Source of the DNA: an uncultured Treponema sp.
Lineage (GTDB): Bacteria; Spirochaetota; Spirochaetia; Treponematales; Treponemataceae
Assembly: GCA_947167745.1 (NCBI GenBank)
Contig: CAMVJE010000024.1
Coordinates: 1-21,437, forward strand
Direction of reading: 5' to 3'
Length of the DNA: 21,437 nucleotides
The first letter of the stretch is position 1. Every line of letters starts with the position of its first letter. Positions 4,080-21,437 of this stretch are shown in pieces. A program made the translations under genes and the position numbers. The notes beneath the pieces are model-generated. The model worked only from the letters and a program-made list of their open reading frames with translations, was not told the DNA's origin and searched no databases.

Positions 4080-4120
4080 ACTATTACTGAAATAGTGGAG
4101 AAAAATCAGGCGATTGTCAA
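4080..4120 (-). promoter_or_regulatory. Promoter and palindromic operator of the ABC exporter operon
   Basis: On the minus strand a consensus TTGACA (4120-4115) is followed by a 17-bp spacer and CACTAT (4097-4092). Overlapping the -10 and running downstream is the 17-bp inverted repeat ACTATTTCAGTAATAGT (plus-strand 4080-4096; six-base arms, five-base centre). A repressor bound there would block polymerase. The palindrome is seen directly; the operator role is inferred. Confidence 0.5.
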
Positions 4121-4124
4121 TTAT

Positions 4125-4153
4125 TTGACGAAGAAACGAAATAATTCTACTAT
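4125..4153 (+). promoter_or_regulatory. Probable promoter of the solute-binding protein gene
   Basis: TTGACG (4125-4130), a 17-bp spacer and TACTAT (4148-4153) lie about 40 bp before ATG 4194. The -10 is a modest match, so this is a candidate only. It is divergent from and does not overlap the exporter promoter. Confidence 0.35.
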
Positions 4154-4193
4154 ATTGTTATTATTTCATTTTTTGATTTGCACAGGGGATTTT

Positions 4194-5105
4194 ATGAAAA
4201 AATTTTTTTCACTTGTTTTTGCATCTGTGCTGGCTCTCTCTGCATTGTCAGCTCAGGATTCTTCTTATGCTGTAAAAGTTTCTGCTCCAAATGGCGCACC
4301 GGCTCTTTCGCTCGCAACATTGGCTGCAAAGAATCCAGAAAATTACACATTTGTAGCTGCTGAAACAATTTCTGCCGAATTTGCCGGCAATAAGGCAGAT
4401 TTCATCATCGCTCCGATTAACGCCGGCGCAAAACTCTACAAAATGGGTAAATCAACTTACAAACTCGCGGCTGTAGTCACTTGGGGAAATTTGTATTTCG
4501 CTTCTCAGAAAAAGAATTTTAAGCTCAAAGATATTAAAAAGTCTGAACTTACACTTTTCGGCGAGAATACAATTAATTCATCAATCGCCCTCGCTGCCCT
4601 CGAAAAAAATAAAATCACTCCAAAATCAGTGAACTATCTCGCAGGTGCGGCAAACACTCAGGCACTTCTTCTTTCTGACTTAGACGCAATCGTTCTTACG
4701 GCAGAACCAGCCCTCACCGCAGCTAAAATGAAGAATCCAAAAATTGTTTCTTATGCTCTCAATGATTTGTATAAAAAATCAACCGGATTTGACGGATTTG
4801 CTCAGGCAGGTCTTTTCGTCCGGGCCGAGACAGTCGAAAAAAATCCACAAGCAGTTGAAGCTTTCATCGCTCAGGCAGAGGAATCATGCAAAAAATGCAG
4901 TGCAAATCTTCCAGAAGTTGTTTCTGCAGCAGTCGAATTAAAAATCCTCCCAAACGCAAAAATCGCAGAAACGGCAATCCCGAATTGTGCGATTCGTTTC
5001 ATGAGCGCAAAAGAAGCAAAATCACAGGTCGAAACAGCGGCAAACATCGACATCAAACAGTACGGTGGCGCGCTTCCTGCTGACGACTTCTACTTTGGAA
5101 AATAA
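4194..5105 (+). CDS. NitT/TauT-type ABC transporter solute-binding protein
   Basis: A 303-residue exported protein. The signal peptide is residues 1-20 (MKKFF, hydrophobic stretch, then SALSA before Q21); there is no lipobox. The mature protein has the layout of NMT1/SsuA-like periplasmic binding proteins that feed importers of sulfonates, nitrate, thiamine precursors or similar small molecules. It ends with the FYFGK-type tail common in treponemal members. ATG 4194 has AGGGG just upstream and begins the signal peptide; the frame is open back to 4095, but that extension would bury the signal. A CKKC pair (C232, C235) is unusual for this family. The permease starts two bases after the stop. 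The ligand is unknown. Confidence 0.75.
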   Translation: MKKFFSLVFASVLALSALSAQDSSYAVKVSAPNGAPALSLATLAAKNPENYTFVAAETISAEFAGNKADFIIAPINAGAKLYKMGKSTYKLAAVVTWGNLYFASQKKNFKLKDIKKSELTLFGENTINSSIALAALEKNKITPKSVNYLAGAANTQALLLSDLDAIVLTAEPALTAAKMKNPKIVSYALNDLYKKSTGFDGFAQAGLFVRAETVEKNPQAVEAFIAQAEESCKKCSANLPEVVSAAVELKILPNAKIAETAIPNCAIRFMSAKEAKSQVETAANIDIKQYGGALPADDFYFGK

Positions 5106-5107
5106 GA

Positions 5108-5851
5108 TTGCCGAATAAAACAAAAAATACACTCTTTTTCTCCCTCGGCATTATTCTCATCGGAGTTTTGATTCAAATTCTGGGAAAGGCAAAAGGGGAT
5201 CCTCTGGTCTTTCCCGGAATTCTTGAAATTCTCAAAGCATTTTTCAATCTTTTAAAAACCCCCGAAACCTACAGGCTTATTCTCACCACATTCTGGCATT
5301 TGTTCGTCGCGCTGATTTTTTCTACGGTTTTGGGAGTGGCAATCGGCATGGCGGAGGGATTGAGCAATTGTGTCCGTCAGATTTTTAAGCCCCTGATGAT
5401 TATGCTCCGTTCGATTCCTATGATTGTCCTTGTAGTGATTATCATGGTGCTTACGAAATATCCCAAAGTGCCATATATTGCCGCCAGTCTCGTTCTTATC
5501 CCCATGATTAGCGAAGCAACTTGCGAGGGCTGCATCAGAATCGACCGGGATTTAATCGATGTTTACAGATTGAACAGTAATTTTTCCCCGCGGATTTTAT
5601 TTTCGGTATATTTGCCACTTATGGCTGGATATTTGAAACAGGCTTTTATAAATGCAGTCGGCACGGGAATAAAAATCATCGTAACGACAGAATATCTTGT
5701 TCAGAGCAAAAATTCTCTCGGCAAGGCAGTTTATTCAAGCGCGTATTTTAATGAGTACGAAGAGATTTATGCCTACGCGCTGATTATGGTGATTCTTGTT
5801 CTTTTGGTGAGCGGACTTCCTCTTCTTTTCGTAAAAAAAGCAAAATCCTAG
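5108..5851 (+). CDS. ABC transporter permease (SsuC/TauC-like)
   Basis: A 247-residue inner-membrane permease of the binding-protein-dependent transport family, with five or six membrane segments. The cytoplasmic EAA loop that contacts the ATPase is at about 136-156 (EATCEGCIRID). The only start giving a full N-terminus is TTG 5108, two bases after the binding-protein stop; the first ATG lies after the second membrane segment. GGAA at 5097-5100, within the end of the upstream gene, may serve as a weak ribosome binding site, so translation is probably coupled. No cognate ATPase gene follows: the next gene is convergent and shares the stop region. The importer must borrow an ATPase encoded elsewhere. 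Confidence 0.82.
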   Translation: MPNKTKNTLFFSLGIILIGVLIQILGKAKGDPLVFPGILEILKAFFNLLKTPETYRLILTTFWHLFVALIFSTVLGVAIGMAEGLSNCVRQIFKPLMIMLRSIPMIVLVVIIMVLTKYPKVPYIAASLVLIPMISEATCEGCIRIDRDLIDVYRLNSNFSPRILFSVYLPLMAGYLKQAFINAVGTGIKIIVTTEYLVQSKNSLGKAVYSSAYFNEYEEIYAYALIMVILVLLVSGLPLLFVKKAKS

Positions 5852-6720
5852 AATTTTACGCTTGTAATCGCCGAGTGGGGGCAGGCCGCCTTGCAGTCTC
5901 CGCAACGAATGCAGTCTGCACTATTGGGCTTTTCGTAGACAGGAATGTTGAGCTTGCAGATTTTTTGGCAAGCTCCGCATTTTGTGCATTTTGTCCCGTC
6001 GATTTTAAATCGGTAGAAGGAAATTTTATTGAAAATTCCGTAAATCGCTCCCAGCGGACAGACATATCGACAGAAAGGACGGTAGATTATAATAGAAGAA
6101 ATAATCGTAAGAATCAGAATGGCAAGCTTCCATCGGAAGATAAATCCCGCCGCTCCCCGCATGGCTGAATTCAAAAGAACGAGGGGAATTCCACCTTCAA
6201 GAGTGCCCACAGGGCAAATCCACTTGCAGAACCATGGTTCACCGAAGCCCATAAAATCCGCCACAAAAGCCGGAAGTAAGATTACGAAAACGGCGAGAAA
6301 GACAAAGCGAAGATAACGCAGGGCTCTCTCACCGGGAAGAGAGCGAATCTTTTTTACGAAGGGGATTTTATAGAGCAAATTCTGCACAAGACCGAAAGGA
6401 CACAAAAATCCGCAGACAAAACGACCGAGGAAAGTGCCGAAAATGACCAAAAGCCCGACGATGTACATGGAGATTTTGTAGTCCCGGCTGTTCAGAGTGG
6501 CTTGAAGGGAGCCGATTGGACAGGCACCCAGCGCGCCAGGGCAGGAATAGCAGTTCATACCTGGAACGCATACATATTTCGATGCCCCTTCAAAAATCTG
6601 ACCGTGAGCAAAGCCTTTGATGTAGCCGTTCGAGAGCGCGGCAAAGCAAGCCTGAACGATGAATCGAATGCGATTGTGTCGTGCGCGTTTTTCCGCGATT
6701 GAAGGTGCTTTCTTTTCCAT
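5848..6720 (-). CDS. NapH/YccM-like membrane 4Fe-4S protein
   Basis: A 290-residue polytopic membrane protein with two C-terminal ferredoxin-type [4Fe-4S] clusters: C245, C248, C251, C255 and C270, C273, C276, C280. Three membrane-proximal CxxxCP motifs (C103/C107, C165/C169, C217/C221) are characteristic of NapH/NosR/CcoG relatives. An N-terminal set, C51, C57, C60 and C67, is typical of the clostridial and spirochaetal branch found near TlpA genes. Such proteins pass electrons across or along the membrane. ATG 6720 lies one base after the stop of the CXXC microprotein gene, so the two are translationally coupled. Its stop is in the CTAG at 5848-5851 that also ends the convergent permease gene. 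It probably supplies electrons to the TlpA/CXXC pair; the direction is inference. Confidence 0.85.
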   Translation of the reverse strand: MEKKAPSIAEKRARHNRIRFIVQACFAALSNGYIKGFAHGQIFEGASKYVCVPGMNCYSCPGALGACPIGSLQATLNSRDYKISMYIVGLLVIFGTFLGRFVCGFLCPFGLVQNLLYKIPFVKKIRSLPGERALRYLRFVFLAVFVILLPAFVADFMGFGEPWFCKWICPVGTLEGGIPLVLLNSAMRGAAGFIFRWKLAILILTIISSIIIYRPFCRYVCPLGAIYGIFNKISFYRFKIDGTKCTKCGACQKICKLNIPVYEKPNSADCIRCGDCKAACPHSAITSVKF

Positions 6721-6721
6721 T

Positions 6722-6874
6722 TTAGCCGATTCCTATGCATTCCATACAGATGTGAGTCGCCTTGTTAAAGACAGTCGCCGCCTCGCCACGGAAAATGCCC
6801 GCAAGAACAAGGGCAATTCCAAGCACAAGGGCAAAAAGAGCGATAAGGCGACGATGTTTTTCGGTCAGTTTCAT
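6722..6874 (-). CDS. CD1871A-type CXXC membrane microprotein
   Basis: A 50-codon gene. The product starts MKLTEKHRR, has one hydrophobic helix (about 10-28, [19 protein letters not shown]) and ends [10 protein letters not shown]. The basic N-terminus predicts a cytoplasmic N-terminus and an extracytoplasmic CMEC dithiol. From memory this matches the small CXXC family named after Clostridioides difficile CD1871A, which is encoded next to 4Fe-4S membrane proteins and TlpA-like thioredoxins. The same arrangement is seen here: TlpA 58 bp upstream, the 4Fe-4S gene 1 bp downstream. AGAGG lies five to six bases before ATG 6874. It could be a thiol relay or assembly partner for the membrane iron-sulfur protein. 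The family assignment rests on the motif and neighbours, not on a search. Confidence 0.8.
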
Positions 6875-6900
6875 AAAAACCTCTGTGCAATCAGATTTAA

Positions 6901-6930
6901 TCCGCGTTTATCTGCGTCCATCTGCGTCTA
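6901..6930. repeat. Three tandem decamers between tlpA-like and CXXC genes
   Basis: TCCGCGTTTA, TCTGCGTCCA and TCTGCGTCTA follow each other without a gap, a 10-bp period close to one DNA turn. On the transcribed strand they read as GACGCAGAT/ACGCGGAT units. I recall similar short interspersed units from intergenic DNA of many phyla. The adjoining sequence ends in CACAGAGG, which supplies the ribosome binding site of the CXXC gene. Confidence 0.6.
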
Positions 6931-6932
6931 AA

Positions 6933-7454
6933 TTACTTCGCCTTTGCCAGCAAGTCGTCGATGATTTTCTGCCAGTCTTTTTGGCTTCTGGCTCCCAAGT
7001 AGACCTGTCCGATGATTTTGCCATCTTTGTCTACGAAGATTGTTGCGGGAACGGCCTGAATATTGCGCAAAAGTCCGTTCATCATGTCTTTGCTGGGAAC
7101 GACATGAGTGTAATTCGCCCCGGTTTTTGCGATGATTTCTTCACCGTCAGCTTTTGGCTTCGGGAGAATATTTCCCATGCGGTCAACGATGTCGATAGGA
7201 ATCCCCACCACTTCAACTCCCTTTGACTTGTTGGCTTCGTTGAGTTTTGCAAGGTCAGGCATTTCTTTAATGCAGGGCGGACAGAAAGTTCCCCAGATGT
7301 TGACCATGGTGATTTTGTTTTTTGCGAAAATTTCGCTTGTAATGGCCGTGCCATTCATGTCTTTTGAGGAAAATGTGACTTTATCTCCGGCTTTTTGTGC
7401 AAAAGAGAGTGTTGCGGCGCAAAGCAGAGCAAAAATTGTAAGAATCTTTTTCAT
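6933..7454 (-). CDS. TlpA-like thiol-disulfide oxidoreductase, exported
   Basis: A 173-residue secreted thioredoxin-fold protein. The signal peptide is residues 1-19 (MKKILTIF, hydrophobic core, SFA before Q20). The redox site is WGTFCPPC with C58 and C61 in the TlpA/ResA position, followed by the usual KEMPDL helix. The later V-PAT segment (QAVPATIFVD) holds the conserved cis-proline. The length fits the family. There is no lipobox, so it should be soluble in the periplasm. GGAGG precedes ATG 7454 with five-base spacing. It is the first gene of a unit with the CXXC microprotein and the membrane 4Fe-4S protein. The likely role is reduction of extracytoplasmic disulfides, with electrons drawn from the membrane protein; the target is unknown, but the secreted UGSC protein is a candidate. 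Confidence 0.88.
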   Translation of the reverse strand: MKKILTIFALLCAATLSFAQKAGDKVTFSSKDMNGTAITSEIFAKNKITMVNIWGTFCPPCIKEMPDLAKLNEANKSKGVEVVGIPIDIVDRMGNILPKPKADGEEIIAKTGANYTHVVPSKDMMNGLLRNIQAVPATIFVDKDGKIIGQVYLGARSQKDWQKIIDDLLAKAK

Positions 7455-7497
7455 GGTGTCCTCCGTCTTTCGTTTTATGTTTTTATTCTAATGCAGA

Positions 7498-7525
7498 CAG
7501 ACGGATTTTCCTTTAAATCCGTCTG
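7498..7525. repeat. Perfect 11-bp inverted repeat upstream of the tlpA-like gene
   Basis: CAGACGGATTT (7498-7508) and AAATCCGTCTG (7515-7525) are exact reverse complements around a six-base centre. It lies 44 bp upstream of the tlpA-like start and 178 bp downstream of the copA stop. No U-tract follows on either strand, so it is not a standard intrinsic terminator. It could be an operator, an mRNA 3'-end stabiliser for copA(Z), or part of the 5' leader of the tlpA-like gene. Confidence 0.6.
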
Positions 7526-7565
7526 AATCAAAGATGAAAAATTATTCAGAAATATTCAGGCGCAT

Positions 7566-7695
7566 CCCCCGCTTTTGCGGGGGTCGGGCTATCCACCGTT
7601 ACGCTGTCGCTCCATTCCTGCGCACTGTCATTGTCGGGTGAGACCCGACAATCCCATTGCTTTGGAACGCCTGGGGCGCGGCTACTATCCCTTGC
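7566..7695. repeat. GC-rich structured intergenic element after copA(Z)
   Basis: About 130 bp immediately 3' of the copA(Z) stop holds two strong hairpins: CCCCCGC-TTTT-GCGGGGG (7566-7583) and ATTGTCGGGT-GAG-ACCCGACAAT (7630-7652). Between and after them is a GC-rich segment with no convincing ORF. Its layout is like interspersed REP-type elements that I recall from treponeme genomes, lying 3' of genes. It may end or stabilise the copA(Z) transcript. Together with the 11-bp inverted repeat it fills the 249-bp gap between copA(Z) and the tlpA-like gene. Confidence 0.55.
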
Positions 7696-7703
7696 GCATT
7701 CCC

Positions 7704-7919
7704 TTAATTCATCTTGATGAATTCGTAGCCCGCTTCCGTCACGGCATTTTTTACGGCGGCCTCGTCAAGAGAAGAACCCTCTTTCAGGGTGACTGTCGCC
7801 TTTCCCTGCTCGTGGCTTGCGACTGCCGACTCCACGCCTTCCAAAGCTTCCAGAGCTTTTTTCACATGCATTTCGCAGTGTTGGCACATCATTCCATTGA
7901 TTTCGATTGTTTTTTCCAT
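7704..7919 (-). CDS. copZ: Probable internal translation start giving free CopZ
   Basis: Inside the copA frame, AAGGAG lies six bases before ATG 7919. From there the sequence encodes a complete 71-residue Atx1/CopZ-like chaperone ([15 protein letters not shown], one HMA domain). Such a strong site inside a coding region suggests that free CopZ is also made, or that two adjacent genes lost the stop between them. TAA triplets in the other frames just upstream (for example AATTAA and CATAAG) would have ended CopA if the frame differed by one base. The chaperone would carry Cu(I) to the ATPase. Confidence 0.6.
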
Positions 7920-10244
7920 TTTTGACTCCTTATGGTTAATTTTGTTTTTGTGCATTTTGAAAAAATTGAGGCGGAGGGCGTTTGAAACTACGCAGAAACT
8001 TGAAAGACTCATTGCCGTCGCTCCGAACATGGGATTGAGTTTCCAGCCCAAAGCCGCCGTAAAGACTCCAGCCGCAAGGGGGATTCCAATCACATTGTAG
8101 AAGAAAGCCCAGAAAAGGTTTTCATGAATGTTTTTCAGCGTTGCCCGGCTCAAGCGGATTGCAGCCGGCACATCTGAAAGTCGGCTTTTCATCAAAACGA
8201 TGTCCGCCGCATCGATTGCCACATCAGTTCCTGCCCCGATGGCGATTCCAATGTCAGCGCGGGTAAGGGCTGGCGCGTCGTTGATTCCGTCTCCCACCAT
8301 GGCCACACTGCCGTTTTCCTGTAATTTTCGGATTACGCTTTCCTTTCCGTCGGGGAGCACGCCTGCAATCACTTCGTCAACTCCGGCCTGCTTTCCAATT
8401 GCCTGAGCTGTTTTTTCATTGTCTCCAGTGAGCATGACCACGCGGATGCCCATTTCCTGCAATTCTTTTATGGCTTGTGGGCTGTCTTCTTTGATAGTGT
8501 CTGCCACCGCGATTATGCCGAGGATTTTTCCGTCACAGGCAAAAAAGAGAGGCGTTTTGCCTGATTCTGCAAGGGCTGCCGCTTTTTCTTCCATTTTTTT
8601 TCCGGCGAAAGTTGGAATCTCCTTTTGCATCTCTTTTATGAAATCCAGCTTTCCCCCTGCAAGAATTTTTCCGTCCATCCTTGCTTTAAGTCCCTTTCCG
8701 CTCAAAGCCTCAAAATCAGTCACATCTTTTGCCTTAAGATTTTTTTCCTCTGCTTTCTGAACGATTGCTTTTGCCAAGGGATGCTCGCTCTTTTTTTCAA
8801 GGGCATAGGAAAGAGCTAAAAGTTCTTCCTCGCTCACGCCTTCTGCAGGAAAAATATCCGTGACGCGGGGAGAGCCTTCTGTAATCGTACCGGTTTTGTC
8901 CAATGCGACAATGCTGATTTTCCCCGCCGCTTCAAGGCTTGCAGATGTCTTGAACAAAATGCCGTTTTTAGCTCCAATGCCGTTTCCAACCATGATTGCA
9001 ACTGGAGTCGCAAGTCCCAGAGCGCATGGGCAGCTGATTACGAGAACCGCCACAGCACGAGTGAGGCTTGTTCCCACATCGGCTCCCAAAAGCGACCAGA
9101 CGATGAATGTAAGAATGGCAATGGAAATCACAAGAGGAACGAAAATACCAGAAACTTTGTCGGCGATTTTTGCAATGGGGGCTTTTGTTGCCGCCGCGTC
9201 GCTTACCATCTGAATAATCTGAGAAAGAGTCGTGTCTTCGCCCACCCGCACGGCCTGACACTTTAAAAATCCAGAAGTGTTGGTCGTGGCAGCAGACACC
9301 TTATCCCCCGCCGTCTTGTCCACTGGAATGCTTTCGCCAGTGAGGGCAGATTCGTTCACCGCGCTGCTTCCTTCAAGCACGATTCCGTCAACGGGAATAT
9401 TCTCGCCCGGGCGCACAAGGAAAACATCACCTTTTTTTACGCTTTCAATGGGAACGGTCTTTTCTTCGCCATTTTCGACAATGACCGCTGTTTTTGGCGC
9501 GAGCTTCATCAATCCTTTTAAGGCATCGGTCGTCTTTCCCTTTGATTTTGCCTCCAGAGTTTTTCCTACGGTAATCAGAGTAAGAATCATGGCCGCCGTC
9601 TCAAAATAAAATTCGTGCATGTAATTCATGACGGCTTCTTCATTCCCTGCGACCACAGCTCCTGTCATGGCAAAAATAGCCCAGACGCTGTAAATAAAAG
9701 CCGAAGCCGAGCCAAGGGCCACCAGAGTATCCATGTTGGGCGCTCTGTGCAGAAGAGACTTAAATCCGCTCACAAAGAATTTCTGGTTTATAATCATGAC
9801 GATTGCAGAAAGCAAAAGCTGGACTAAGCCCATCGCCACATGATTTCCGTCGAAAAAAGAAGGCAGAGGCCACTTCCACATCATGTGCCCCATGGAGACA
9901 TACATGAGCGGAATCAAAAATATAATAGAAGAAAGAAGCCTTTTTATGAGGATTGGGCTTTCCCGGTCGCGGAGGGCATCTTCGGCACTTGCAGCTTGCC
10001 CTTTTTGCCCGCTAAAGCCGCTTGAAGAAGAGTCTGATTTTGCCTGAGATTTTAGGCTTGCTCCGTAGCCCGCATTTACTACGGCCTCAATAATTGCCTC
10101 GTCGCTGGCATTTCCTTCGATTCCCATGGAATTTGTAAGGAGACTCACCGAGCAGGATGTAACACCGCTCACCTTTGAGACCGCCTTTTCCACACGAGCC
10201 GAACAGGCCGCGCAAGACATTCCTGTGACATTAAATAGCTTCAT
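7704..10244 (-). CDS. copA: Cu(I)-exporting P1B-type ATPase fused in frame to CopZ
   Basis: An 846-residue copper-exporting ATPase. An N-terminal HMA domain has C11xxC14 (GMSCAAC). The core has TGES (302-305), the membrane Cu site C405-P-C407, the phosphorylated D449 in DKTGT, the SEHP motif of the nucleotide-binding domain and the hinge GDGINDAP. The last two membrane spans carry YN and MxxSS, the signature of Cu(I) (P1B-1) transport. Residues 776-846 form a second complete HMA domain (GMMCQHC, C787/C790) that looks like a free CopZ chaperone joined through a short linker ending HKESK. Start: ATG 10244 with AGGG six bases upstream; the frame stays open to 10265 without a better site. A C-terminal HMA is unusual, since metal-binding domains normally sit at the N-terminus. 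The fusion may be recent, because a ribosome binding site survives at the junction. Confidence 0.92.
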
Positions 10245-10298
10245 AATTTTCCCTGACTGTTTCACTTATAAATATAATCAAATTTTTCTTTTTCGACA

Positions 10299-10311
10299 GT
10301 GATTTAGTCAC
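10299..10311. promoter_or_regulatory. Short inverted repeat upstream of copA
   Basis: GTGA-TTTAG-TCAC lies 55 bp before the copA start. TATATT and TATAAG, either of which could be a -10, lie between it and the gene on the minus strand. The arms are only four bases. It resembles neither a CopY box nor a standard CRP site, so the role is a guess. Confidence 0.2.
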
Positions 10312-10330
10312 ATTAAAAGGAAAAAACTAT

Positions 10331-10514
10331 TTTGCGGTCCCTGCCTGCCGGCAGGTCGCTATGTCCGCCCTAGGGAGCGACGGCTTTAGCCGGCAAAATG
10401 CTCCGGTGGAGCATTTTGAGCGAGTCTCCGAGCTGCTATGCAGCGAAGGTCGGACTCACGCTCATTGCCAGCAAGCTGGCAACTACGGGGCTCCCAGCGC
10501 TACCGCATTTTTTT
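10331..10514. repeat. Hairpin-dense GC-rich intergenic element between copA and the UGSC gene
   Basis: The 349-bp gap between the copA start and the UGSC stop has no credible ORF but packs several hairpins: CCTGCC/GGCAGG (10344-10355), AAAATGCTCC-GGT-GGAGCATTTT (10395-10417), GCTGC-TAT-GCAGC (10432-10444) inside a longer bulged arm (GAGCG...CGCTC, about 10418-10462), and TTGCCAGC-AA-GCTGGCAA (10465-10482). A run of seven T at 10508-10514 follows on the plus strand. It is far more GC-rich than its AT-rich flanks. It could be an interspersed repeat, a structured 3' UTR of the UGSC transcript, or an RNA gene. The remaining bases, to 10593, show nothing clear. Confidence 0.5.
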
Positions 10515-10593
10515 CTTGACGATTCGCGGGAATTAAACAATATTTAAAACGATAAGTCCTTGCCAATCAAGAAAGATTTTTCTGTGATTTATC

Positions 10594-12663
10594 CTACTTC
10601 TTCTTTGGCGTTACGGGCTTTTGCGGTCGCTGGGGGCGGCTCCCCTGCTTTGCGGCGGTGGGCTGCTTTTTGCTTTTCTTCGCGCTTACAGCCTTCTTTC
10701 CCTCGTCCTTGTTGAAAGTTCCCTTCAAATAGAAGTTCTCAATGGGCTGGTAGCCAAGAGGAGCGACAAGTTCGTTCCAGTCTTTCGGGAGCTTGATTTC
10801 CGTGGTGACAAAACCGCCGCCCGGCATAACCTGAACCTTGTTGCGGTTTGCATCTCCTGTGACCAAAAAGGCCGTGTCACCCTTGTTCATGGTGGCGATT
10901 GTCATAATCTCATCGTCTTTCACAATCGGTTTGAGCCATTCGGGAGTTGGAGTCATTTTTGCCTGCTCGGCTTCGTCCTTTGAAAGCATGTCATAATGTT
11001 CGTCGAAAGAGCGGCGCTTGTACTGCTGGCTTCCGGTGTTTGCCCAGTAGTGGGCGTAGGTGCGGAGGGCCAAGGGGCGGCGGGCTGTCTCAATCAAAGC
11101 GTCCTCCAAATCAGACTTTGTCTTGTATTCCTTCGCCAAATCCCGCGCCACATATTCCGTGATGAAAACCGTTCGTGGAACCTGTGGCTTTGTGTTGCCC
11201 AAGCCATTCTGCTGCTTTTCGGTGATGTCGAAGGCCATGATTTCCATGATTTTTTCCGGGTCGTCGGTGGCAGGAGTTACATTGTTTCCCCATGCAAGCG
11301 CGCTTCCTGCTGTGATTGTATTTGCGTTCAAATCGTAGCCCTGCTGAACATGATAGGGCTTCCAGCCAAGCTTTACGCAGGCCTCGTCGTCCTCGCTGAA
11401 TGTGAAGGGGGTGAGGTAGCCGAAAGAGCCCATGCGGTTTTCCTTCACATAGTAGCCGCCGATGTTGAGCATGGCCAGGTCGATGAAGCGACCGAGGGCT
11501 TTGTTGGCCTTCTCGCTTATCATGCCCTGCTGATTGTCGATTCCCAGCTGGCGGGCGAGGGGGCCGTTGAGCCAAGCGAAGGGAGTCCAGCCGTGGGTTG
11601 AGGCCAGGGGTTTCCTCCATTCTCCGTCGTTCATTCCCTGCACGAAAGCAATGCAAATCGGCATGAACTCAGGCGGGACTCCTGCCATGACAGCGTTCGC
11701 CGCCACGGTGTAGACTGTGCACTCACGGTAGGCCAGGGCGAATGTTCCCAAAATGTCGCTTCCCTTGTAGCCGGTGAATTTCAAGTATTCCTGAACGGCC
11801 TCGTCTGTTGGCGGAACTACGGGCAAGCCGTCAGTCCAGCCGTTAATCTGCATGTACTCCTGAATCTCGTCGAAATTTCCGTAATAGATGATTTCATCGG
11901 CAGGGCGTTTTCCTTCCGGGGCATACAAAGCTATTTCTTCTTTTGTAATCTGAGTGGTGAGGGCGGTTTTAATCTGGGGCCAGAGAACTTCCCTTGCGTT
12001 CTTCTTAAGCTCATCAGTTGAGTGAGAGGCAAAGGCTCCAGGATATTCAGCCGTGCGGAGGACAGGCACGCCCCGGTTTACGCCTGTTGAATGAACCTGA
12101 GCCACGAATGTGGGAGCTGCGACCGTGACCGTGGGAATTCCGATGTATTCCGCGGCGATTGAGTCTCCGGTCTCCTTTGTGGTGCAAAGACCGCAGCCGC
12201 AGTTTCCAACGATAACGGCATCAACTTTAAGTTCCTTGAGCTTATCCTGAAAGGCCTTTGTCTTTTCTGTCGTGCCGAAGACCGAATAAGGGCCAGCCTG
12301 ACCGATGTCGTTAAACATGTAGATCTTCGCTGTCGGGAATTCTTTTTCGATGCATCTTTTAAGCTCATTGTGGGTGGTGACTGCCATAAAAGAGCCGCCC
12401 ACAAGCGCGATTGTCTTTCCTTTGAGGTTATCGAGCCTTTTTACCTGGCTAATCATTGGCACATCGTGATAGCCCACCGGGGAAACGATTGCGTAATTTT
12501 GGCTTCCGTCATCGGCGTACTGGGGAACAAAACATACTCCGTCCACGCATTCATCAGGATTGGTGGAGTATTTTGTCGCAGCGAAGAGGTTGTTAAGGCT
12601 AGCCGAAACCACAAGCAAAGTAAATGCCATACCTGCAAGAATAAATTTTTTCAGTTTCTTCAT
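10594..12663 (-). CDS. Secreted UGSC-type thiol protein with TDGLPVVPPT domain
   Basis: A 689-residue exported protein. The signal peptide covers about residues 1-29 (MKKLKKF, hydrophobic core, FAA). A CxxxxC pair follows at C39/C44. The first domain (about 60-235) has GNCGCGLC at 153-160; C157-G-L-C160 lies where selenoprotein relatives carry Sec-Gly-Ser-Cys (the UGSC motif, known from metagenomic selenoproteome surveys). The second domain (about 270-650) opens with WTDGLPVVPPT (276-286), a motif I associate with UGSC-linked proteins of unknown function. A lysine- and proline-rich tail (about 657-689) ends the protein. AGGAG precedes ATG 12663; the frame is open to 12720 without a ribosome site. 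GrdB and PrdB reductase subunits also use Sec/Cys motifs, so a reductive role is possible. The substrate is unknown. Confidence 0.72.
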   Translation of the reverse strand: MKKLKKFILAGMAFTLLVVSASLNNLFAATKYSTNPDECVDGVCFVPQYADDGSQNYAIVSPVGYHDVPMISQVKRLDNLKGKTIALVGGSFMAVTTHNELKRCIEKEFPTAKIYMFNDIGQAGPYSVFGTTEKTKAFQDKLKELKVDAVIVGNCGCGLCTTKETGDSIAAEYIGIPTVTVAAPTFVAQVHSTGVNRGVPVLRTAEYPGAFASHSTDELKKNAREVLWPQIKTALTTQITKEEIALYAPEGKRPADEIIYYGNFDEIQEYMQINGWTDGLPVVPPTDEAVQEYLKFTGYKGSDILGTFALAYRECTVYTVAANAVMAGVPPEFMPICIAFVQGMNDGEWRKPLASTHGWTPFAWLNGPLARQLGIDNQQGMISEKANKALGRFIDLAMLNIGGYYVKENRMGSFGYLTPFTFSEDDEACVKLGWKPYHVQQGYDLNANTITAGSALAWGNNVTPATDDPEKIMEIMAFDITEKQQNGLGNTKPQVPRTVFITEYVARDLAKEYKTKSDLEDALIETARRPLALRTYAHYWANTGSQQYKRRSFDEHYDMLSKDEAEQAKMTPTPEWLKPIVKDDEIMTIATMNKGDTAFLVTGDANRNKVQVMPGGGFVTTEIKLPKDWNELVAPLGYQPIENFYLKGTFNKDEGKKAVSAKKSKKQPTAAKQGSRPQRPQKPVTPKKK

Positions 12664-12738
12664 AAAAATCTCCTGTGTCTTTGTGATTTTAACTATATCC
12701 CTTGTGGTAACAGGATGCATGAATCAGGCGTGAATGAA

Positions 12739-12811: not shown

Positions 12812-13297
12812 ATGGTTCATAAAATGAAATTTTTACTAAGTTTTATTTTTCTCCTTTTGCCGGTGATTCTCTTTGCCCGGGAAGATGCAGGTACGTTTAA
12901 TTACAGCGGGCGCAAGATTCCTGAAAAAGCGGGCGTTTTTACTGTTATTGGCGTTAAGAGCGAAGTGGATGACGGGGATTTTCTTTTGATTTCTGTGTAT
13001 TTTAATGATATGGTCGACTCAAGTTCCGTGCGGAATCGTAGAATTTTTGTAAATGAAAAAGCAATTCCGCCTGTGACCCGCTTTCTTTTTTCAAAGAATC
13101 GTCGTATGGTTCAGTTTAAGATTAAGCGGCCGGAATCTTCTCCTACAAGTGGAGGCAAAGAATTTTCGCTCAGGCTTGTGCAGTTTCTGTCCTGCAGTGG
13201 CCAGACTATGAATCCAATTGAACTGAAAGGTCTTGAAGAAAACTGTTTTTTTAAATTTTCAAGGGAGAAGCGCGAATGGCAAAAATCCTCATTGTAG
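12812..13297 (+). CDS. Small exported protein with a possible Ig-like fold
   Basis: A 161-residue protein with a signal peptide (about 1-22: MVHKMKFLL, hydrophobic core, LFA before R23). The mature part is beta-rich; the stretch around 68-104 (SVYFNDMVDSSSV followed by an RMVQFKI strand) resembles SbsA-type bacterial Ig-like domains, a weak match made by eye. Two candidate starts exist, ATG 12812 and ATG 12824, neither with a ribosome binding site. TATAAT ends at 12805, which puts the predicted transcript start at about 12812, so the mRNA may be leaderless from the first ATG. It overlaps the response regulator gene by 22 bp and is probably an accessory or sensed partner of the two-component system. 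Confidence 0.65.
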   Translation: MVHKMKFLLSFIFLLLPVILFAREDAGTFNYSGRKIPEKAGVFTVIGVKSEVDDGDFLLISVYFNDMVDSSSVRNRRIFVNEKAIPPVTRFLFSKNRRMVQFKIKRPESSPTSGGKEFSLRLVQFLSCSGQTMNPIELKGLEENCFFKFSREKREWQKSSL

Positions 13298-13956
13298 AAG
13301 ACGATAAAGAACTTTCTCACATCACCGAGCTTGAGTTGACCCACGAGGGATTTTCTGTCGTAACGGCCGCGGACGGTCGGGAGGGATTTGAAAAAATTCA
13401 GGGCGAAAATCCTGATCTTGTCCTGCTGGATGTCATGCTTCCCCGTTTGAGCGGGCTGGAGATTTTGCGCAAAGTTAGGAATGAACTGAATTCTGACCTT
13501 CCCATAATTTTGGTGACGGCGCGGGGAGAGACAATCGATAAAGTTGACGGCTTGAACAGTGGGGCTGACGATTACATTGCAAAGCCATTTAAAATCGAAG
13601 AGTTGCTTGCCCGTATGAAGGCGGTGCTCCGTCGTACACAGAAAAATACGGATACAAGATCAGTCGTGCTTAAACACGGCTCAATTGAGATGATTGCTGA
13701 CGAGATGAGGGTTATCTTTGAAGGCGGAGCAGTTGAGCTTTCCAAAAATGAATTCTTACTTCTCAAATATTTCCTTGAAAATGCAGGCAAAATTCTTTCC
13801 AGAGATGACATTATAAAAAAAGTCTGGGGTGAAGATTATTATATAGAAGAAAACAGTGTTGATGTTTATGTGCGTCACCTGCGCTTGAAATTTGGCGAGA
13901 AAATAATAAAAACGGTAAGGGGCATGGGCTACATTATGCAGGAAGGTGAAAAATGA
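13276..13956 (+). CDS. OmpR-family response regulator
   Basis: A 226-residue DNA-binding regulator. The receiver domain (1-120) has the acidic pocket E8/D9/D10, phospho-acceptor D52 (LLDVMLP), switch T81 and K103 (AKPF). A winged-helix output domain (about 130-222) ends with the VRGMGY wing motif. GGGAG lies eight bases before ATG 13276. The gene starts inside the exported-protein gene and overlaps the kinase gene by ATGA, so the three should be co-translated. Likely targets are its own promoter and the divergent UGSC gene, through the TTCAGAA boxes. The signal is not known; copper or thiol stress would fit the neighbourhood, but that is inference. Confidence 0.95.
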   Translation: MAKILIVEDDKELSHITELELTHEGFSVVTAADGREGFEKIQGENPDLVLLDVMLPRLSGLEILRKVRNELNSDLPIILVTARGETIDKVDGLNSGADDYIAKPFKIEELLARMKAVLRRTQKNTDTRSVVLKHGSIEMIADEMRVIFEGGAVELSKNEFLLLKYFLENAGKILSRDDIIKKVWGEDYYIEENSVDVYVRHLRLKFGEKIIKTVRGMGYIMQEGEK

Positions 13957-15209
13957 GCAAAAAGCTTTTCCCTCCTGTTGCTTTTTTTTTATCTTTCCGG
14001 TTTATGCTTCTGCTTGCGGCATCGATGATTCTTCTTTCTGTGATTTTTCTTTCGCTGCTCAGGTTTTCTGTCACTCGCAAGCAAGATGTTGAGCTAGAGG
14101 AAAGTCTTAACCTTATTTGCGAGACGATTCGGTTAAATGGTAAGGATGATTTGGCTTTCCTGGATCTTCCCTATTATATCACCTATACGGTCTGGGAAAA
14201 GAAAAGCGGAGCCGTGCTTGCAACTAATGACAGTCTTCTTCCCCATCTTGAATCAGACGGAAAAAGCCGAACTTATTTTGAAAAAGATTATTTTACCGAC
14301 AGCGATTTAAATATCCGATATCGGACTGCTCGACTTGATTTGACAGACGGTCTAGCCGAAAATTATCTCATAATAGAATGTGCCATTGATATTGCAAATG
14401 ATTCTGCCGCAAAGATGAGCCGCGCCCTTCCTCGCATCACACTTATTTCTTTGATACCGATTTTGATTCTTTCATTTGCGCTTTCTTACCTGATTTCACG
14501 GAGTACGATTAAGGCTTTTAGAAAACTGCAAGAAGACTACGACAGGGAAAAGGCTTTTACCGGCAATGTGAGTCACGAACTGAAAACACCGATTTCGATT
14601 ATCGACGGCCATGCAAATCTATTAAAGCGCTGGGGAAAGGATGATCCTAAGCAGCTTGCTGAATCAATCGACGCTATTTTGCATGAAACAGAAAACATGA
14701 ATTCCATCGTGACGACTCTACTGGATATGAGCCGGATTGAAAACGGAAAGCTTAAAATCGAAAAAACGAAATTCTTTGTGACAAACTTTTTTGTCAAGCT
14801 CAGGGATGAATTTAAAATCACACATCCAGAATGCAGGATTGTGATTTCTGACCCGGACTTCCTTGAAATCGAAAGCGACTGGCAGAAACTTCATCAGATT
14901 TTCACTGTGATTTTATCCAACAGCGTAAAATTTGCCGGCTCGGATTGTAGCATTAGCCTTTCAGCACGCAAAGTCGGAAACAGAATTGAACTTTCTGCGA
15001 GTGACAATGGGCTGGGCTTTTCTGAGCAGGTTCTGCCCCATGTCTTTGAGCGGTTTTACAAAGGAGACCAATCCCACGACAGAAATGTAAGCGGAGCCGG
15101 GCTGGGGCTTTCAATCGCAAAAGTTCTTGTTTCAGCGTTAGGTGGTGAAATCTATGTAGAAAATGCAAGTGGTGGCGGAGCTTGCATAAAAATTGTACAC
15201 TCTCTTTAG
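13953..15209 (+). CDS. Sensor histidine kinase
   Basis: A 418-residue membrane kinase, cognate to the response regulator just upstream (four-base ATGA overlap). Two membrane helices (about 13-37 and 163-183) enclose an extracytoplasmic sensor region of roughly 125 residues without obvious metal-binding His or Cys clusters. The HisKA box has H208 in VSHELKTP. The ATPase domain has the N-box NSVKF (N323), G1 box DNGLGF (D351) and G2 box GAGLGLS (381-387). All catalytic motifs are intact. A run of nine T (13982-13990) within codons 10-13 could allow slippage. The sensor domain does not suggest direct copper binding. Confidence 0.94.
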   Translation: MSKKLFPPVAFFLSFRFMLLLAASMILLSVIFLSLLRFSVTRKQDVELEESLNLICETIRLNGKDDLAFLDLPYYITYTVWEKKSGAVLATNDSLLPHLESDGKSRTYFEKDYFTDSDLNIRYRTARLDLTDGLAENYLIIECAIDIANDSAAKMSRALPRITLISLIPILILSFALSYLISRSTIKAFRKLQEDYDREKAFTGNVSHELKTPISIIDGHANLLKRWGKDDPKQLAESIDAILHETENMNSIVTTLLDMSRIENGKLKIEKTKFFVTNFFVKLRDEFKITHPECRIVISDPDFLEIESDWQKLHQIFTVILSNSVKFAGSDCSISLSARKVGNRIELSASDNGLGFSEQVLPHVFERFYKGDQSHDRNVSGAGLGLSIAKVLVSALGGEIYVENASGGGACIKIVHSL

Positions 15210-17983: not shown

Positions 17984-18020
17984 TTTTTGTGGTGAATTAT
18001 TTTTCATCCCGCTCGTGATT

Positions 18021-18332
18021 CTATTTCCGAATCTTTTCCTTCAATTTAATTCCCAATTTTTCAAGCTCCTCGTCAATCACTGAGTCAATTCTGGCAAAAA
18101 GGCTGTCATCGCCTGAGAATTCTTGCGCCGTGTAAAAGAAACTTGCTGGCGTTGTATTAAAAATGACACAAAGCGCGTCCAGAAGTTCTGCCGTCACAAA
18201 AGATTTTCCGTTTTCTATGCGGCTGAGATGATTGGGGATTATGTCTAATTTTTCAGCCAGTTCTTCCTGAGTCAGTTTTCTTAGTTTTCTGAAATGCTTT
18301 AGATTCTCGCCAAAAATTTCTTTTACATTCAT
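18021..18332 (-). CDS. XRE-family transcriptional regulator
   Basis: A 103-residue regulator with an N-terminal Cro/C1-type helix-turn-helix (about 9-63; LTQEELAEKLDIIPNHLSRIENG covers the two key helices) and a C-terminal acidic/basic helical tail that may dimerise. No clear ribosome binding site precedes ATG 18332. TATAAA lies about nine bases upstream on the minus strand, so the transcript may have a very short leader. It marks the border between the conserved block on the left and the AT-rich accessory block on the right, and is divergent from the 143-residue gene, which it could control. No integrase or phage gene accompanies it. Confidence 0.85.
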   Translation of the reverse strand: MNVKEIFGENLKHFRKLRKLTQEELAEKLDIIPNHLSRIENGKSFVTAELLDALCVIFNTTPASFFYTAQEFSGDDSLFARIDSVIDEELEKLGIKLKEKIRK

Positions 18333-18422
18333 GTAGTGAATTTTATAAAGTGGAACCGTAATAAAACATATTGTTTAAAGATGAAATATTTAAAATAATC
18401 TTCATTACATGCTCAATTTTCC

Positions 18423-18450
18423 TTGACTTGTTGATTTTTAATGTTATAAT
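18423..18450 (+). promoter_or_regulatory. Strong extended -10 promoter for the accessory block
   Basis: TTGACT (18423-18428), a 16-bp spacer and TATAAT (18445-18450) preceded by TG (TGTTATAAT) make the best promoter match in the window. It would start transcription at about 18457, some 40 bases before the next gene. Confidence 0.7.
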
Positions 18451-18498
18451 TTTTAAGAAACAAAGCATTTTATGCTAAGTTTAAGGAGAAATTTTACT

Positions 18499-18930
18499 AT
18501 GCGAAAAATTATTACCGTATCATCAGATGATGTTGAATCAAGAACTTCAGCCTTAAAGATTCTGTCATCATTGTTTTCTGAGACTTCTGAATTTGAAGAA
18601 ATTTGGCGTGACTGGGGTACAGACAGTTGGGGTTGGTTTAAAATTAATGGCATCACGATTTTTGTAAGCACAACGGGTTCTGATGCAGCATCTTTCAAAA
18701 AGAATATCGAGTATATGCAGGAATATGACTGTTCAATAGGTGTAATGGCAGCTCCAAAATCAGCGGCAGCAGCTACAGATGAAATAGAAATTGAATCGAT
18801 TGATATAAAAAACTATACGAAAAATATAAAAAATGCTACAAAAGCCAGTACAGAAGCAAGAAACAGAATCCTTGCGTCGGCTCTTTTTATAAAAGTATGT
18901 AATGACCATGGTGTTATTCCGGCTGTATAA
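18499..18930 (+). CDS. Unrecognised 143-residue protein
   Basis: I do not recognise this family. The product is soluble, with no signal peptide or membrane span. A tryptophan-rich stretch, EEIWRDWGTDSWGWF, lies at about 34-48 and is followed by a beta-like segment (INGITIFVS). The C-terminal half is rich in Ala, Lys and Asn and probably helical. AAGGAG lies ten bases before ATG 18499; the in-frame ATG 18472 has no site. A strong promoter drives it, so it should be well expressed. A 55-bp gap separates it from the leucine-rich-repeat lipoprotein gene. It is divergent from the XRE regulator. Confidence 0.7.
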   Translation: MRKIITVSSDDVESRTSALKILSSLFSETSEFEEIWRDWGTDSWGWFKINGITIFVSTTGSDAASFKKNIEYMQEYDCSIGVMAAPKSAAAATDEIEIESIDIKNYTKNIKNATKASTEARNRILASALFIKVCNDHGVIPAV

Positions 18931-18985
18931 AGAAGGCATAAGAGAATAATTGAATGGATTTTATCCTTTTGTTTAGGAGAAAATA

Positions 18986-19822
18986 ATGATGAATAAAACA
19001 ATAATTATAATTTTTTCATTTTTCTGTTTTGTTTTAGCAGGATGTAACTGTTCACCAACACTTACAGCAAATGGAATTACCGTTCCTTTAGAAAAAGCAG
19101 AGGAGCTTGTAAAAACAATAAAAGAAGATTCTGAAATCATAGTAAAAGGAACTGTAACAAAAGAAGATTTGGAAGAAATTGCAAATGCTTTTTATGTACC
19201 TTTGGATACTCCAGATCCAACGGTGTTAAGGTACTTCCTTCCAAAAAATGTGAAAATTGTTTTGAATTTATCAAATGCAAAAGGAATTAGAGAAATAAGC
19301 GATGAATTTAGCGAGCACTATAATCTAAAAAAAATAATTTTGCCGTTGGGTATCAAAAAATTAGGAAAAGGTTTTAATATGGGTACAGATGTTAAAAAGT
19401 TCATAGTTCCTTCGTCTGTGACAGAAATTAAAGAGTTTGCACCTTTGAATCAGGAACTCAAATTTATAGAAGTTTCAGAAAAAAATAAAAATTACAGTAG
19501 CTATGACGGAGTATTATATAGCAAGGATATGCAGATATTGATTTGTTGTCCTGCTAGCCACAGTAGAGAACTAAAAATACATGATGGTACAAAAACAATT
19601 TGTACAGGAGCTTTTTGGCGTTGTAAAAATTTAGAAGATGTAATAGTTCCTGAATCGGTGACGAAAATTGAACAAAGTGCATTTTTTAATTGTAATAATC
19701 TCAGAAGCGTTACACTTCCATCAAGCATTCAGTTAACTGAAGACAACCTTTCAAATATTTTTTATGAATGTGAACGGCTTTCCACTATTTATTACGATGG
19801 TGAAACTTATAAATGGGAATAG
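18986..19822 (+). CDS. Lipoprotein with BspA-type leucine-rich repeats
   Basis: A 278-residue predicted lipoprotein: lipobox LAGC with lipidated C20 after a hydrophobic leader. The first half of the mature protein (about 25-95) is charged and has no recognised domain. From about 107 to 265 come irregular BspA-type (LRR_5) repeats, visible as I-V-P-x-S-V-T-x-I type strands (FIVPSSVTEIKEF, VIVPESVTKIEQSAF, VTLPSSI) with F..C.NL turns between. Such proteins are often surface-exposed in treponemes and take part in adhesion or protein binding. AGGAG lies six bases before ATG 18986, with a second ATG directly after. AT-rich codon use differs from the left part of the window. Confidence 0.82.
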   Translation: MMNKTIIIIFSFFCFVLAGCNCSPTLTANGITVPLEKAEELVKTIKEDSEIIVKGTVTKEDLEEIANAFYVPLDTPDPTVLRYFLPKNVKIVLNLSNAKGIREISDEFSEHYNLKKIILPLGIKKLGKGFNMGTDVKKFIVPSSVTEIKEFAPLNQELKFIEVSEKNKNYSSYDGVLYSKDMQILICCPASHSRELKIHDGTKTICTGAFWRCKNLEDVIVPESVTKIEQSAFFNCNNLRSVTLPSSIQLTEDNLSNIFYECERLSTIYYDGETYKWE

Positions 19823-19844
19823 TAAAGCAAATTTAGGTGTTATT

Positions 19845-20981: not shown

Positions 20982-20998
20982 CCTGGAGCTTGAGGATA

Positions 20999-21364
20999 AT
21001 GAAAAATTCTGATTCAAACATCGCAAAGCTAAAATCTCTTCTTGAAAGCAATGGCCTTGAACACTGTATTCCGTTGCTTGAAGAGAAAAAACTGTTGGAC
21101 AAATCGCTTCTTGCCAAAATGACAGAAAGCGACTATGAAAAAATCGGCATAACTGAAATCAGCGACCGAAAAAAATTGCTTACGCTATTCGGCAAAAAAG
21201 AAAAAGGCTGCCTGATACCAATTTTGATTGTCATTGTTATAATTGCAGGCGTATTGATTTTACTTCATTATTTAGGCATATTGGGCTCGTTGGTCAAAAT
21301 CGTGAAAGGCGCAGGTCTATTGCTTTTGGTTTTTATCCTTGCATGTGCTTTTTTGTTTAGTTGA
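20999..21364 (+). CDS. SAM-domain membrane protein
   Basis: A 121-residue protein with an N-terminal sterile alpha motif (about 7-65: GLEHCIPLLEEKKL, LLAKMTESDYEKIGI and RKKLLTLF fit the five-helix SAM pattern) followed by two membrane segments (about 71-90 and 103-120). SAM domains are common in eukaryotes and sparse in bacteria, where they mediate oligomerisation. The basic loop before the first helix places SAM in the cytoplasm. ATG 20999 is 17 bp after the previous stop, with GGAG at 20985-20988 or GAGG at 20992-20995; an in-frame TTG at 20990 overlaps that region and is less likely. It is the last gene in the window; 21365-21437 holds no terminator or gene that I can support. Confidence 0.75.
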   Translation: MKNSDSNIAKLKSLLESNGLEHCIPLLEEKKLLDKSLLAKMTESDYEKIGITEISDRKKLLTLFGKKEKGCLIPILIVIVIIAGVLILLHYLGILGSLVKIVKGAGLLLLVFILACAFLFS

Positions 21365-21437
21365 CAGCTAGAGAAGGTAAATTGGTCTGTACAGAAGGAG
21401 TCATGATTCTATTTAATTGAGTTATAAAAATAAAATC

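What the first reader, a model, noticed from the sequence alone, without database searches (positions are those of the whole stretch)
5848..12663. Extracytoplasmic thiol-redox and copper cluster centred on a UGSC protein
A secreted UGSC-type protein, CopA(Z), an exported TlpA thioredoxin, a membrane CXXC microprotein and a NapH-like 4Fe-4S protein lie in one direction. NapH-like proteins move electrons and TlpA proteins reduce exported disulfides; both are established. Together they would make a complete path from cytoplasmic reductant to the Cys-Gly-Leu-Cys site of the UGSC protein, with copper export protecting it. That linkage is inference, since the genes are separated by two long structured gaps and may not form one transcript.
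Basis: partly seen in the sequence, partly recalled or inferred. Interest (0 to 1): 0.72.

Follow-up and report, generated by a model that had tools for sequence, protein, structure and literature searches.

The report
Exported UGSC protein with thiol-reducing module
In a gut Treponema, a secreted enzyme of unknown job sits beside a small set of genes that probably carries electrons across the cell membrane to keep cysteines outside the cytoplasm reduced; that set may be a substitute for the usual DsbD/CcdA system.

Summary
The genes are as described, on one strand: secreted UGSC protein (CGLC), CopA-CopZ, exported TlpA, a 50-aa CXXC membrane microprotein (CD1871A family) and a NapH-like Fe-S protein. 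In 200 genomes of the window's genus, TlpA and CXXC directly follow 10 of 22 near-full-length UGSC genes (an intact NapH-like gene next in 7 of these 10); UGSC fragments lie near CXXC in 5 more genomes. Elsewhere TlpA follows UGSC in L040 and L046, and DsbD in L053. The trio is widespread, its cysteines nearly invariant, and it occurs as NapH-thioredoxin fusions. In a Clostridia-type sample DsbD_TM is rarer where CXXC occurs. Best reading: a transmembrane dithiol-reducing wire (Fe-S clusters, CXXC, TlpA) with, among its clients, an exported Cys form of a mostly selenoprotein family distantly like glycine-reductase protein B. Electron direction, donor and UGSC substrate are inferred. Copper export is a neighbour in a few close relatives only. 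The link is frequent, not obligatory: 12 of 22 UGSC genes lie elsewhere, and 7 of 9 tested non-Treponema carriers lack CXXC.

The parts
10594..12663 (-). Exported UGSC-family protein (689 aa from the ATG at 12663, behind a GGAG; the open frame reaches 12720): signal-peptide-like N-terminus, N-terminal CX4C, Rossmann-like UGSC domain, large C-terminal domain without a clear solved relative, basic tail
   Evidence: export inferred from the N-terminal hydrophobic segment
12184..12195 (-). Active-site motif Cys-Gly-Leu-Cys (position of UGSC in selenoprotein relatives)
   Evidence: read from the sequence; Cys in 23 of 23 exported-clade rows, TGA in 41 of 47 distant loci with an aligned site (counted by eye)
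12532..12549 (-). N-terminal CX4C (CVDGVC), possible relay dithiol
   Evidence: pattern CX4C-x-[VLI]-P found in 110 of 120 listed homologues; 4 of the other 10 start after this region; role inferred
10266..10593 (-). Gap UGSC-CopA: mostly the leader of CopA as in L031/G319 (96.5% over 115 and 90.7% over 107 positions), with about 80 nt of a repeat-like insert also seen in L110
7704..10265 (-). CopA-CopZ: copper P1B ATPase with N-terminal HMA and C-terminal CopZ-like domain; neighbour, not judged part of the module
7455..7703 (-). Structured gap CopA-TlpA; short pieces recur near UGSC genes of relatives
6933..7454 (-). Exported TlpA/ResA-like thioredoxin
   Evidence: export inferred from the N-terminal hydrophobic segment
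7272..7283 (-). TlpA active site Cys-Pro-Pro-Cys (WGTFCPPC)
   Evidence: read from the sequence
6722..6874 (-). CD1871A-family membrane microprotein, one hydrophobic segment, ends ICMECIGIG
   Evidence: NF040920 62 bits, cut-off 32; both Cys in 36 of 36 aligned sequences
6737..6748 (-). CXXC (Cys-Met-Glu-Cys) near the C-terminus of the microprotein, predicted extracytoplasmic
   Evidence: side of membrane inferred from the basic N-terminus
5848..6720 (-). NapH-like membrane protein with two 4Fe-4S ferredoxin motifs and ten further invariant Cys in and around the membrane segments
   Evidence: 18 of its 19 Cys in 35 of 35 aligned sequences

Best explanation
TlpA, the CXXC microprotein and the NapH-like protein form a transmembrane dithiol-reducing module, working like DsbD/CcdA but built on iron-sulphur clusters. 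Electrons from a cytoplasmic or membrane donor (ferredoxin or quinol; not known which) pass through the clusters of the NapH-like protein, reduce the CXXC at the outer end of the microprotein, and from there reduce exported TlpA. In this lineage one client is the exported UGSC protein, whose CGLC site is reduced by TlpA, perhaps through its N-terminal CX4C. The UGSC protein is an exported, cysteine form of a family otherwise rich in selenoproteins and distantly like glycine-reductase protein B, so it is probably a thiol-dependent reductase acting outside the cytoplasm; its substrate is unknown. Shown: gene linkage, conservation, fusions, statistical relations. Inferred: electron direction, donor, membrane sidedness, reduction of UGSC by TlpA, the reaction. 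CopA is a neighbour only.
For: Linkage: TlpA then CXXC directly after UGSC in 10 of 22 near-full-length loci of 200 genus genomes, with frames overlapping or 2 nt apart in L125 and L124; scattered over the UGSC tree, at least 9 state changes. Of 9 genomes with only partial hits, 4 have a UGSC fragment within 1 kb of CXXC and one at 1.4 kb. CXXC in 19 of 21 UGSC genomes v. 86 of 179 others, Fisher p 1.3e-4, kinship ignored. Other lineages: TlpA follows UGSC in L040 and L046, DsbD in L053. Module: NapH-like next to CXXC in 25 of 25 Spirochaetota loci and 30 of 30 class-of-G469 loci; TlpA-like near in 23 of 25 and 23 of 30. Two single-chain NapH-ferredoxin-thioredoxin fusions, each right after a frame that ends in the CXXC domain. 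In the class of G469 DsbD_TM occurs in 12 of 39 CXXC genomes v. 113 of 206 others, p 0.005. A CXXC copy with in-frame UGA (ULEC) in a genome with SelB. The UGSC domain hits a GrdB model at E 2.6e-5.
Against: 12 of 22 near-full-length UGSC loci are not next to TlpA-CXXC, including that of the nearest genome G001; two UGSC genomes (G347, G371; 85% and 67% complete) show no CXXC. In 3 of the 10 linked loci the NapH-like gene is not intact and directly next: a 63-aa fragment in G319, none found in the 1.5 kb held in G423, 1.4 kb away in G447. 7 of 9 non-Treponema UGSC genomes tested lack CXXC, and 3 of the 9 show neither CXXC nor DsbD_TM. CXXC is kept in 86 genus genomes without near-full-length UGSC, so UGSC is not the only client. 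In the genus the contrast with DsbD_TM depends on the threshold: 0 of 5 genomes with hits over 60 bits carry CXXC (p 0.02, my threshold, chosen after seeing the hits), but 3 of 9 over the curated cut-off and 8 of 18 at E 0.001 do. GrdB scores are far under cut-off (23 v. 602 bits). In the window CopA and two structured gaps separate UGSC from TlpA, so co-transcription there is not shown.
Confidence: 0.52

Rival explanations
1. The trio is a general extracytoplasmic thiol-reducing module, but UGSC is not its client: UGSC sits beside it by old synteny and is reduced by something else or needs no reduction.
For: 86 of 105 CXXC genus genomes have no near-full-length UGSC; 12 of 22 UGSC loci are elsewhere; UGSC fragments remain near CXXC in 5 genomes.
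Against: TlpA next to UGSC also in L040 and L046, DsbD next to UGSC in L053; tight or overlapping frames in L124 and L125; at least 9 changes on the tree rather than one frozen block.
Confidence: 0.22
2. The chain runs the other way: UGSC oxidises an external thiol or other substrate and passes electrons through TlpA and CXXC to the NapH-like protein and into the cell.
For: NapH-like proteins are described as modules that serve reductases and oxidases (PMC8238504, passages).
Against: TlpA/ResA relatives are reductants (established knowledge, recalled); DsbD, a reductant supplier, follows UGSC in L053; DsbD_TM is rarer with CXXC in the class of G469.
Confidence: 0.1
3. A metal-handling island: UGSC and TlpA bind or reduce copper or organometals, with CopA exporting the ion (a cousin of the SAO operon).
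For: CopA beside UGSC in the window and in G411, after a UGSC remnant in G319, and as a 3' fragment in G275; the permease next door has a weak SaoP hit (45.2 v. cut-off 295 bits).
Against: 24 of 25 trio loci show no CopA hit at E 1e-4; the CopA cases all lie in the window's 13-row clade; no other Sao model was listed for the ten proteins scanned.
Confidence: 0.1

Closest known systems
DsbD / CcdA transmembrane thiol reductases (PF02683)
   Same: Proposed job: carry reducing power across the membrane to an exported TlpA-like thioredoxin
   Different: No DsbD_TM hit in the ten window proteins scanned; Fe-S membrane protein plus CXXC microprotein instead of cysteine-pair transmembrane helices
Flavinylated NapH-like systems (PMC8238504, passages read)
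   Same: NapH-like Fe-S protein (PF12801) handing electrons to an extracytosolic carrier
   Different: That survey defined its clusters by flavinylation genes; here the carrier is a CXXC microprotein plus thioredoxin and no FMN-binding domain was hit
Ferredoxin:thioredoxin reductase (recalled, no call)
   Same: Fe-S cluster reducing a disulfide of a thioredoxin
   Different: FTR is soluble; no sequence relation tested
UGSC family selenoproteins (PF24696/NF041046) and the UGSC/Unknown_1 fusion of Zhang and Gladyshev 2008 (PMC2398784, passages)
   Same: UGSC domain; a two-domain architecture that may be the same fusion (their alignment not seen)
   Different: Cys in place of Sec, exported, below the NF041046 cut-off, extra N-terminal CX4C
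Glycine/sarcosine reductase component B beta (GrdB/GrdF)
   Same: Weak profile match (GrdB for the window protein; GrdF for L043); that the stretch holds the GrdB selenocysteine is recalled
   Different: Exported, one chain, far below cut-offs; no glycine-reductase model was listed for the other window proteins scanned
SAO operon (Haft and Gwadz 2023, J Bacteriol e00259-22; not held, seen only as a reference entry, a figure legend and table rows in other papers)
   Same: Weak SaoP-like permease nearby
   Different: SaoP far below cut-off, no other Sao model listed

Membership tests
UGSC family | Pfam PF24696 gathering score | tested here: met
   64.9 bits, cut-off 25
UGSC family | NCBIfam NF041046 equivalog cut-off | tested here: not met
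   49.3 bits, cut-off 125
UGSC family | Sec at first motif position | tested here: not met
   TGC codon, Cys; 23 of 23 exported-clade rows are Cys
Glycine reductase selenoprotein B | TIGR01917 cut-off | tested here: not met
   23.3 bits, cut-off 602.2
CD1871A family CXXC protein | NF040920 cut-off | tested here: met
   62 bits, cut-off 32
NapH/MauN ferredoxin-type protein | TIGR02163 cut-off | tested here: not met
   65.6 bits, cut-off 213; PF12801 met
TlpA/ResA thioredoxins | Pfam Redoxin score and CXXC; NCBIfam ResA/TlpA cut-offs | tested here: inconclusive
   Redoxin met (57.9 v. 26.6) and CPPC present; ResA 60.1 v. 170 and TlpA 58.7 v. 230 not met
DsbD/CcdA | DsbD_TM domain PF02683 | tested here: not met
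   no hit in the ten proteins scanned
Flavinylated NapH-like system | FMN-binding domain in or beside the NapH-like gene | tested here: not met
   no such Pfam hit in the ten proteins scanned, which lie between 4095 and 15209
SAO operon | SaoP and other Sao models over cut-off | tested here: not met
   only SaoP, 45.2 bits, cut-off 295
CopA copper exporter | TIGR01511 cut-off | tested here: met
   591 bits, cut-off 397
Transmembrane thiol-reducing system (function) | Reduction of exported TlpA by the membrane parts | not testable with these tools
   needs biochemistry

The most novel reading that the evidence does not exclude
The NapH-like protein, the CD1871A microprotein and TlpA are a widespread, undescribed third type of transmembrane thiol-reducing system, an iron-sulphur 'membrane ferredoxin:thioredoxin reductase' that can substitute for DsbD/CcdA in anaerobes, exists as NapH-thioredoxin fusions and in a selenocysteine version, and powers an exported glycine-reductase-like enzyme in gut bacteria.
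Probability: 0.37. Interest if true: 0.78.

Novelty: new variant of a known kind. Interest (0 to 1): 0.62.

Why it matters
In the window's genus only 9 of 200 genomes have a DsbD_TM hit over the curated cut-off, so where such anaerobes get reducing power for exported thioredoxins is open. A named three-gene module with natural fusions gives a direct, testable answer. It also gives the exported UGSC proteins, of unknown function, a likely electron source and a class of chemistry to test.

Tried and rejected

Rows dropped or not read: L001 (part of L002) in scripts; 8 of 55 distant loci had no aligned active site; 25 of 40 CXXC matches and 30 of 40 were read as loci; genomes of 9 of the 14 non-Treponema loci among L031-L054 were tested. 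Cross-tables were tallied by hand.
Full report
WHAT IS THERE. The window is from a gut-type Treponema. Its nearest held genome is G001 (29% of sampled words), whose UGSC contig has the length of a Treponema sp. UBA3813 contig; UGSC is 93% identical there. Five - strand genes match the finding. The UGSC frame starts at 12720 or, better, at the ATG 12663 behind a GGAG. The gaps of 328 and 249 nt fold well beyond shuffles. The first gap is largely the CopA leader also found in L031 (UBA4326), with about 80 nt of a repeat-like insert.

IS THE LINKAGE REAL? In 296 Spirochaetota genomes the CXXC family occurs in 39 and the UGSC protein in 5. In the 200 genomes searched of the window's genus, UGSC hits occur in 30 and CXXC in 105. 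Near-full-length UGSC (600 or more residues) is in 21 genomes, 22 loci. In 10 of the 22 loci TlpA and CXXC follow directly on the same strand: G319, G423, G447, G304, G275, G299, G380, G393, G388, G117 (CXXC 0.5-0.85 kb away). In 7 of these 10 an intact NapH-like gene comes next; G319 has a 63-aa fragment there (an intact set lies further on), G423 none in the 1.5 kb held, G447 has it 1.4 kb away. In L125 UGSC and TlpA overlap by 4 nt and TlpA and CXXC by 4 nt; in L124 UGSC and TlpA are 2 nt apart. G456 has the trio 2.3 kb downstream. The other 11 loci are not linked; G347 and G371 have no CXXC hit. CXXC is in 19 of 21 UGSC genomes against 86 of 179 others (Fisher p 1.3e-4, kinship ignored). 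Of the 9 genomes with only partial UGSC hits, G192, G390, G433 and G377 have a fragment within 1 kb of CXXC and G425 at 1.4 kb; those of G433 and G377 are only 27 and 23 residues long. For G192 and G390 the whole trio was seen beside the remnant. On a UGSC tree of 32 rows the TlpA-next state needs at least 9 changes.

OTHER LINEAGES. Loci L031-L054 (49-93% identity) form an exported clade. Of these 24, three end inside the UGSC frame; TlpA is the next gene in 7 of the other 21, among them L040 (Lachnospiraceae title) and L046 (Prevotella title), and in L053 the next gene is a DsbD (PF02683 98.7 bits). So different thiol-reducing proteins take the same place. Against this, only 2 of the 9 non-Treponema genomes tested carry CXXC, 4 of 9 carry DsbD_TM and 3 show neither.

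ACTIVE SITE. All 23 exported-clade rows have Cys at the UGSC position; of 47 distant loci with an aligned site 41 have TGA, 5 Cys and 1 neither (counted by eye; 8 further loci gave no row). The exported form is thus the Cys branch of a largely selenoprotein family. NCBIfam GrdB models match residues 122-260 at E about 3e-5 and GrdF matches L043 at 2.4e-4, all far below cut-offs. That GrdB carries its Sec in this stretch and uses it to cleave a C-N bond is recalled, not tested. The UGSC domain is Rossmann-like; the C-terminal domain is confidently modelled but without a clear solved relative.

THE MODULE. The NapH-like gene adjoins CXXC in 25 of 25 Spirochaetota loci and 30 of 30 class-of-G469 loci; among the 11 CXXC copies it does so intact in 8. 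TlpA-like genes are close in 23 of 25 and 23 of 30. Eighteen NapH-like cysteines are present in 35 of 35 sequences: eight in the ferredoxin part, ten in or near the membrane segments. Both microprotein cysteines are in 36 of 36, close to the C-terminus. Two genomes carry one chain with NapH-like, ferredoxin and thioredoxin domains, each directly behind a frame that ends in the CXXC domain; one of them, G471, also has the exported UGSC of L045. In G576 the CXXC reads ULECIGIG with an in-frame UGA, the frame scores 62.8 bits against NF040920, and SelB is present; this is a single case in an assembled genome and could be an error.

AGAINST DsbD/CcdA. In 245 genomes of the class of G469, DsbD_TM occurs in 12 of 39 CXXC genomes against 113 of 206 others (p 0.005, kinship ignored). 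In the genus the picture is threshold-dependent: none of the 5 genomes with a hit over 60 bits has CXXC (p 0.02, threshold chosen afterwards), but 3 of 9 over the curated cut-off and 8 of 18 at E 0.001 do, against 105 of 200 overall.

HOW IT PROBABLY WORKS. Electrons go from an unknown inner donor through the Fe-S clusters to the outer CXXC, to TlpA, to exported clients, UGSC among them. Linkage, conservation and fusions are shown; direction, sidedness, donor and the UGSC reaction are inferred. Overall confidence 0.52; that UGSC is a reductase in the GrdB manner, about 0.35.

COPPER. CopA is beside UGSC in the window and in G411, and as a 3' fragment in G275; in G319 a UGSC C-terminal remnant precedes CopA-TlpA-CXXC-NapH, the window's own order, next to a separate UGSC-TlpA-CXXC set; in G447 it lies 2 kb past the trio on the other strand. 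All are in the window's 13-row clade. Of the 25 trio loci only that of G275 shows a CopA hit. In G001 the same trio, with the same flanking genes, has neither CopA nor UGSC beside it. I read CopA as a neighbour carried by rearrangement.

KNOWN OR NEW. The single families are named in NCBIfam. A 2021 survey (PMC8238504, passages) describes NapH-like systems defined by flavinylation genes, and DsbD systems; the passages I saw do not describe this one. Searches listed no account of the trio that I recognised; PMC13188914 has no occurrence of NF040920 or CD1871. The key SAO paper was not held.

Noticed in passing
L168:7404-7535 (+), genome G576: CD1871A-family microprotein with in-frame UGA at the first Cys of CXXC (ULECIGIG); the genome has SelB. 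Possible new selenoprotein form; single case.
   Followed up: partly
L169:2493-4100 (-) and L170:2384-4129 (-): Single-chain NapH-like/ferredoxin/thioredoxin fusions, each preceded by a 277-294 aa frame that ends in the CXXC domain.
   Followed up: yes
window 4095-5851 (+): NMT1/SsuA-like binding protein and permease (weak SaoP hit) converging on the NapH-like gene, with no ATPase gene beside them on that strand. The pair is kept in G001 (L003) but gave no hit at the other 24 trio loci. A passage in PMC11326576 calls C. difficile CD1871, the gene whose number the CXXC family's name echoes, an ABC transporter permease.
   Followed up: partly
window 12812-15209 (+): Small protein, response regulator and histidine kinase divergent from UGSC; the cassette is beside UGSC in G001 too (L002), and other regulator-kinase pairs lie near UGSC in L032, L033 and L034: candidate regulators.
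   Followed up: partly
L007, L008, L009 (genome G088): Three UGSC two-domain genes with in-frame TGA in one Spirochaetota genome; two end in a CX4C tail (CKDGSC, CSDGSC) like the N-terminal CX4C of the exported form.
   Followed up: partly
L031:403-1230, L032:4888-5667, L002:9570-10421: Exported protein just upstream of UGSC in several Treponema, its N-terminus resembling the UGSC signal region; only a sub-threshold hydrolase hit (Hydrolase_4, 20.7 bits, cut-off 27).
   Followed up: no
window 18000-21437: G+C falls from about 0.48 to 0.31: a possible acquired stretch.
   Followed up: no
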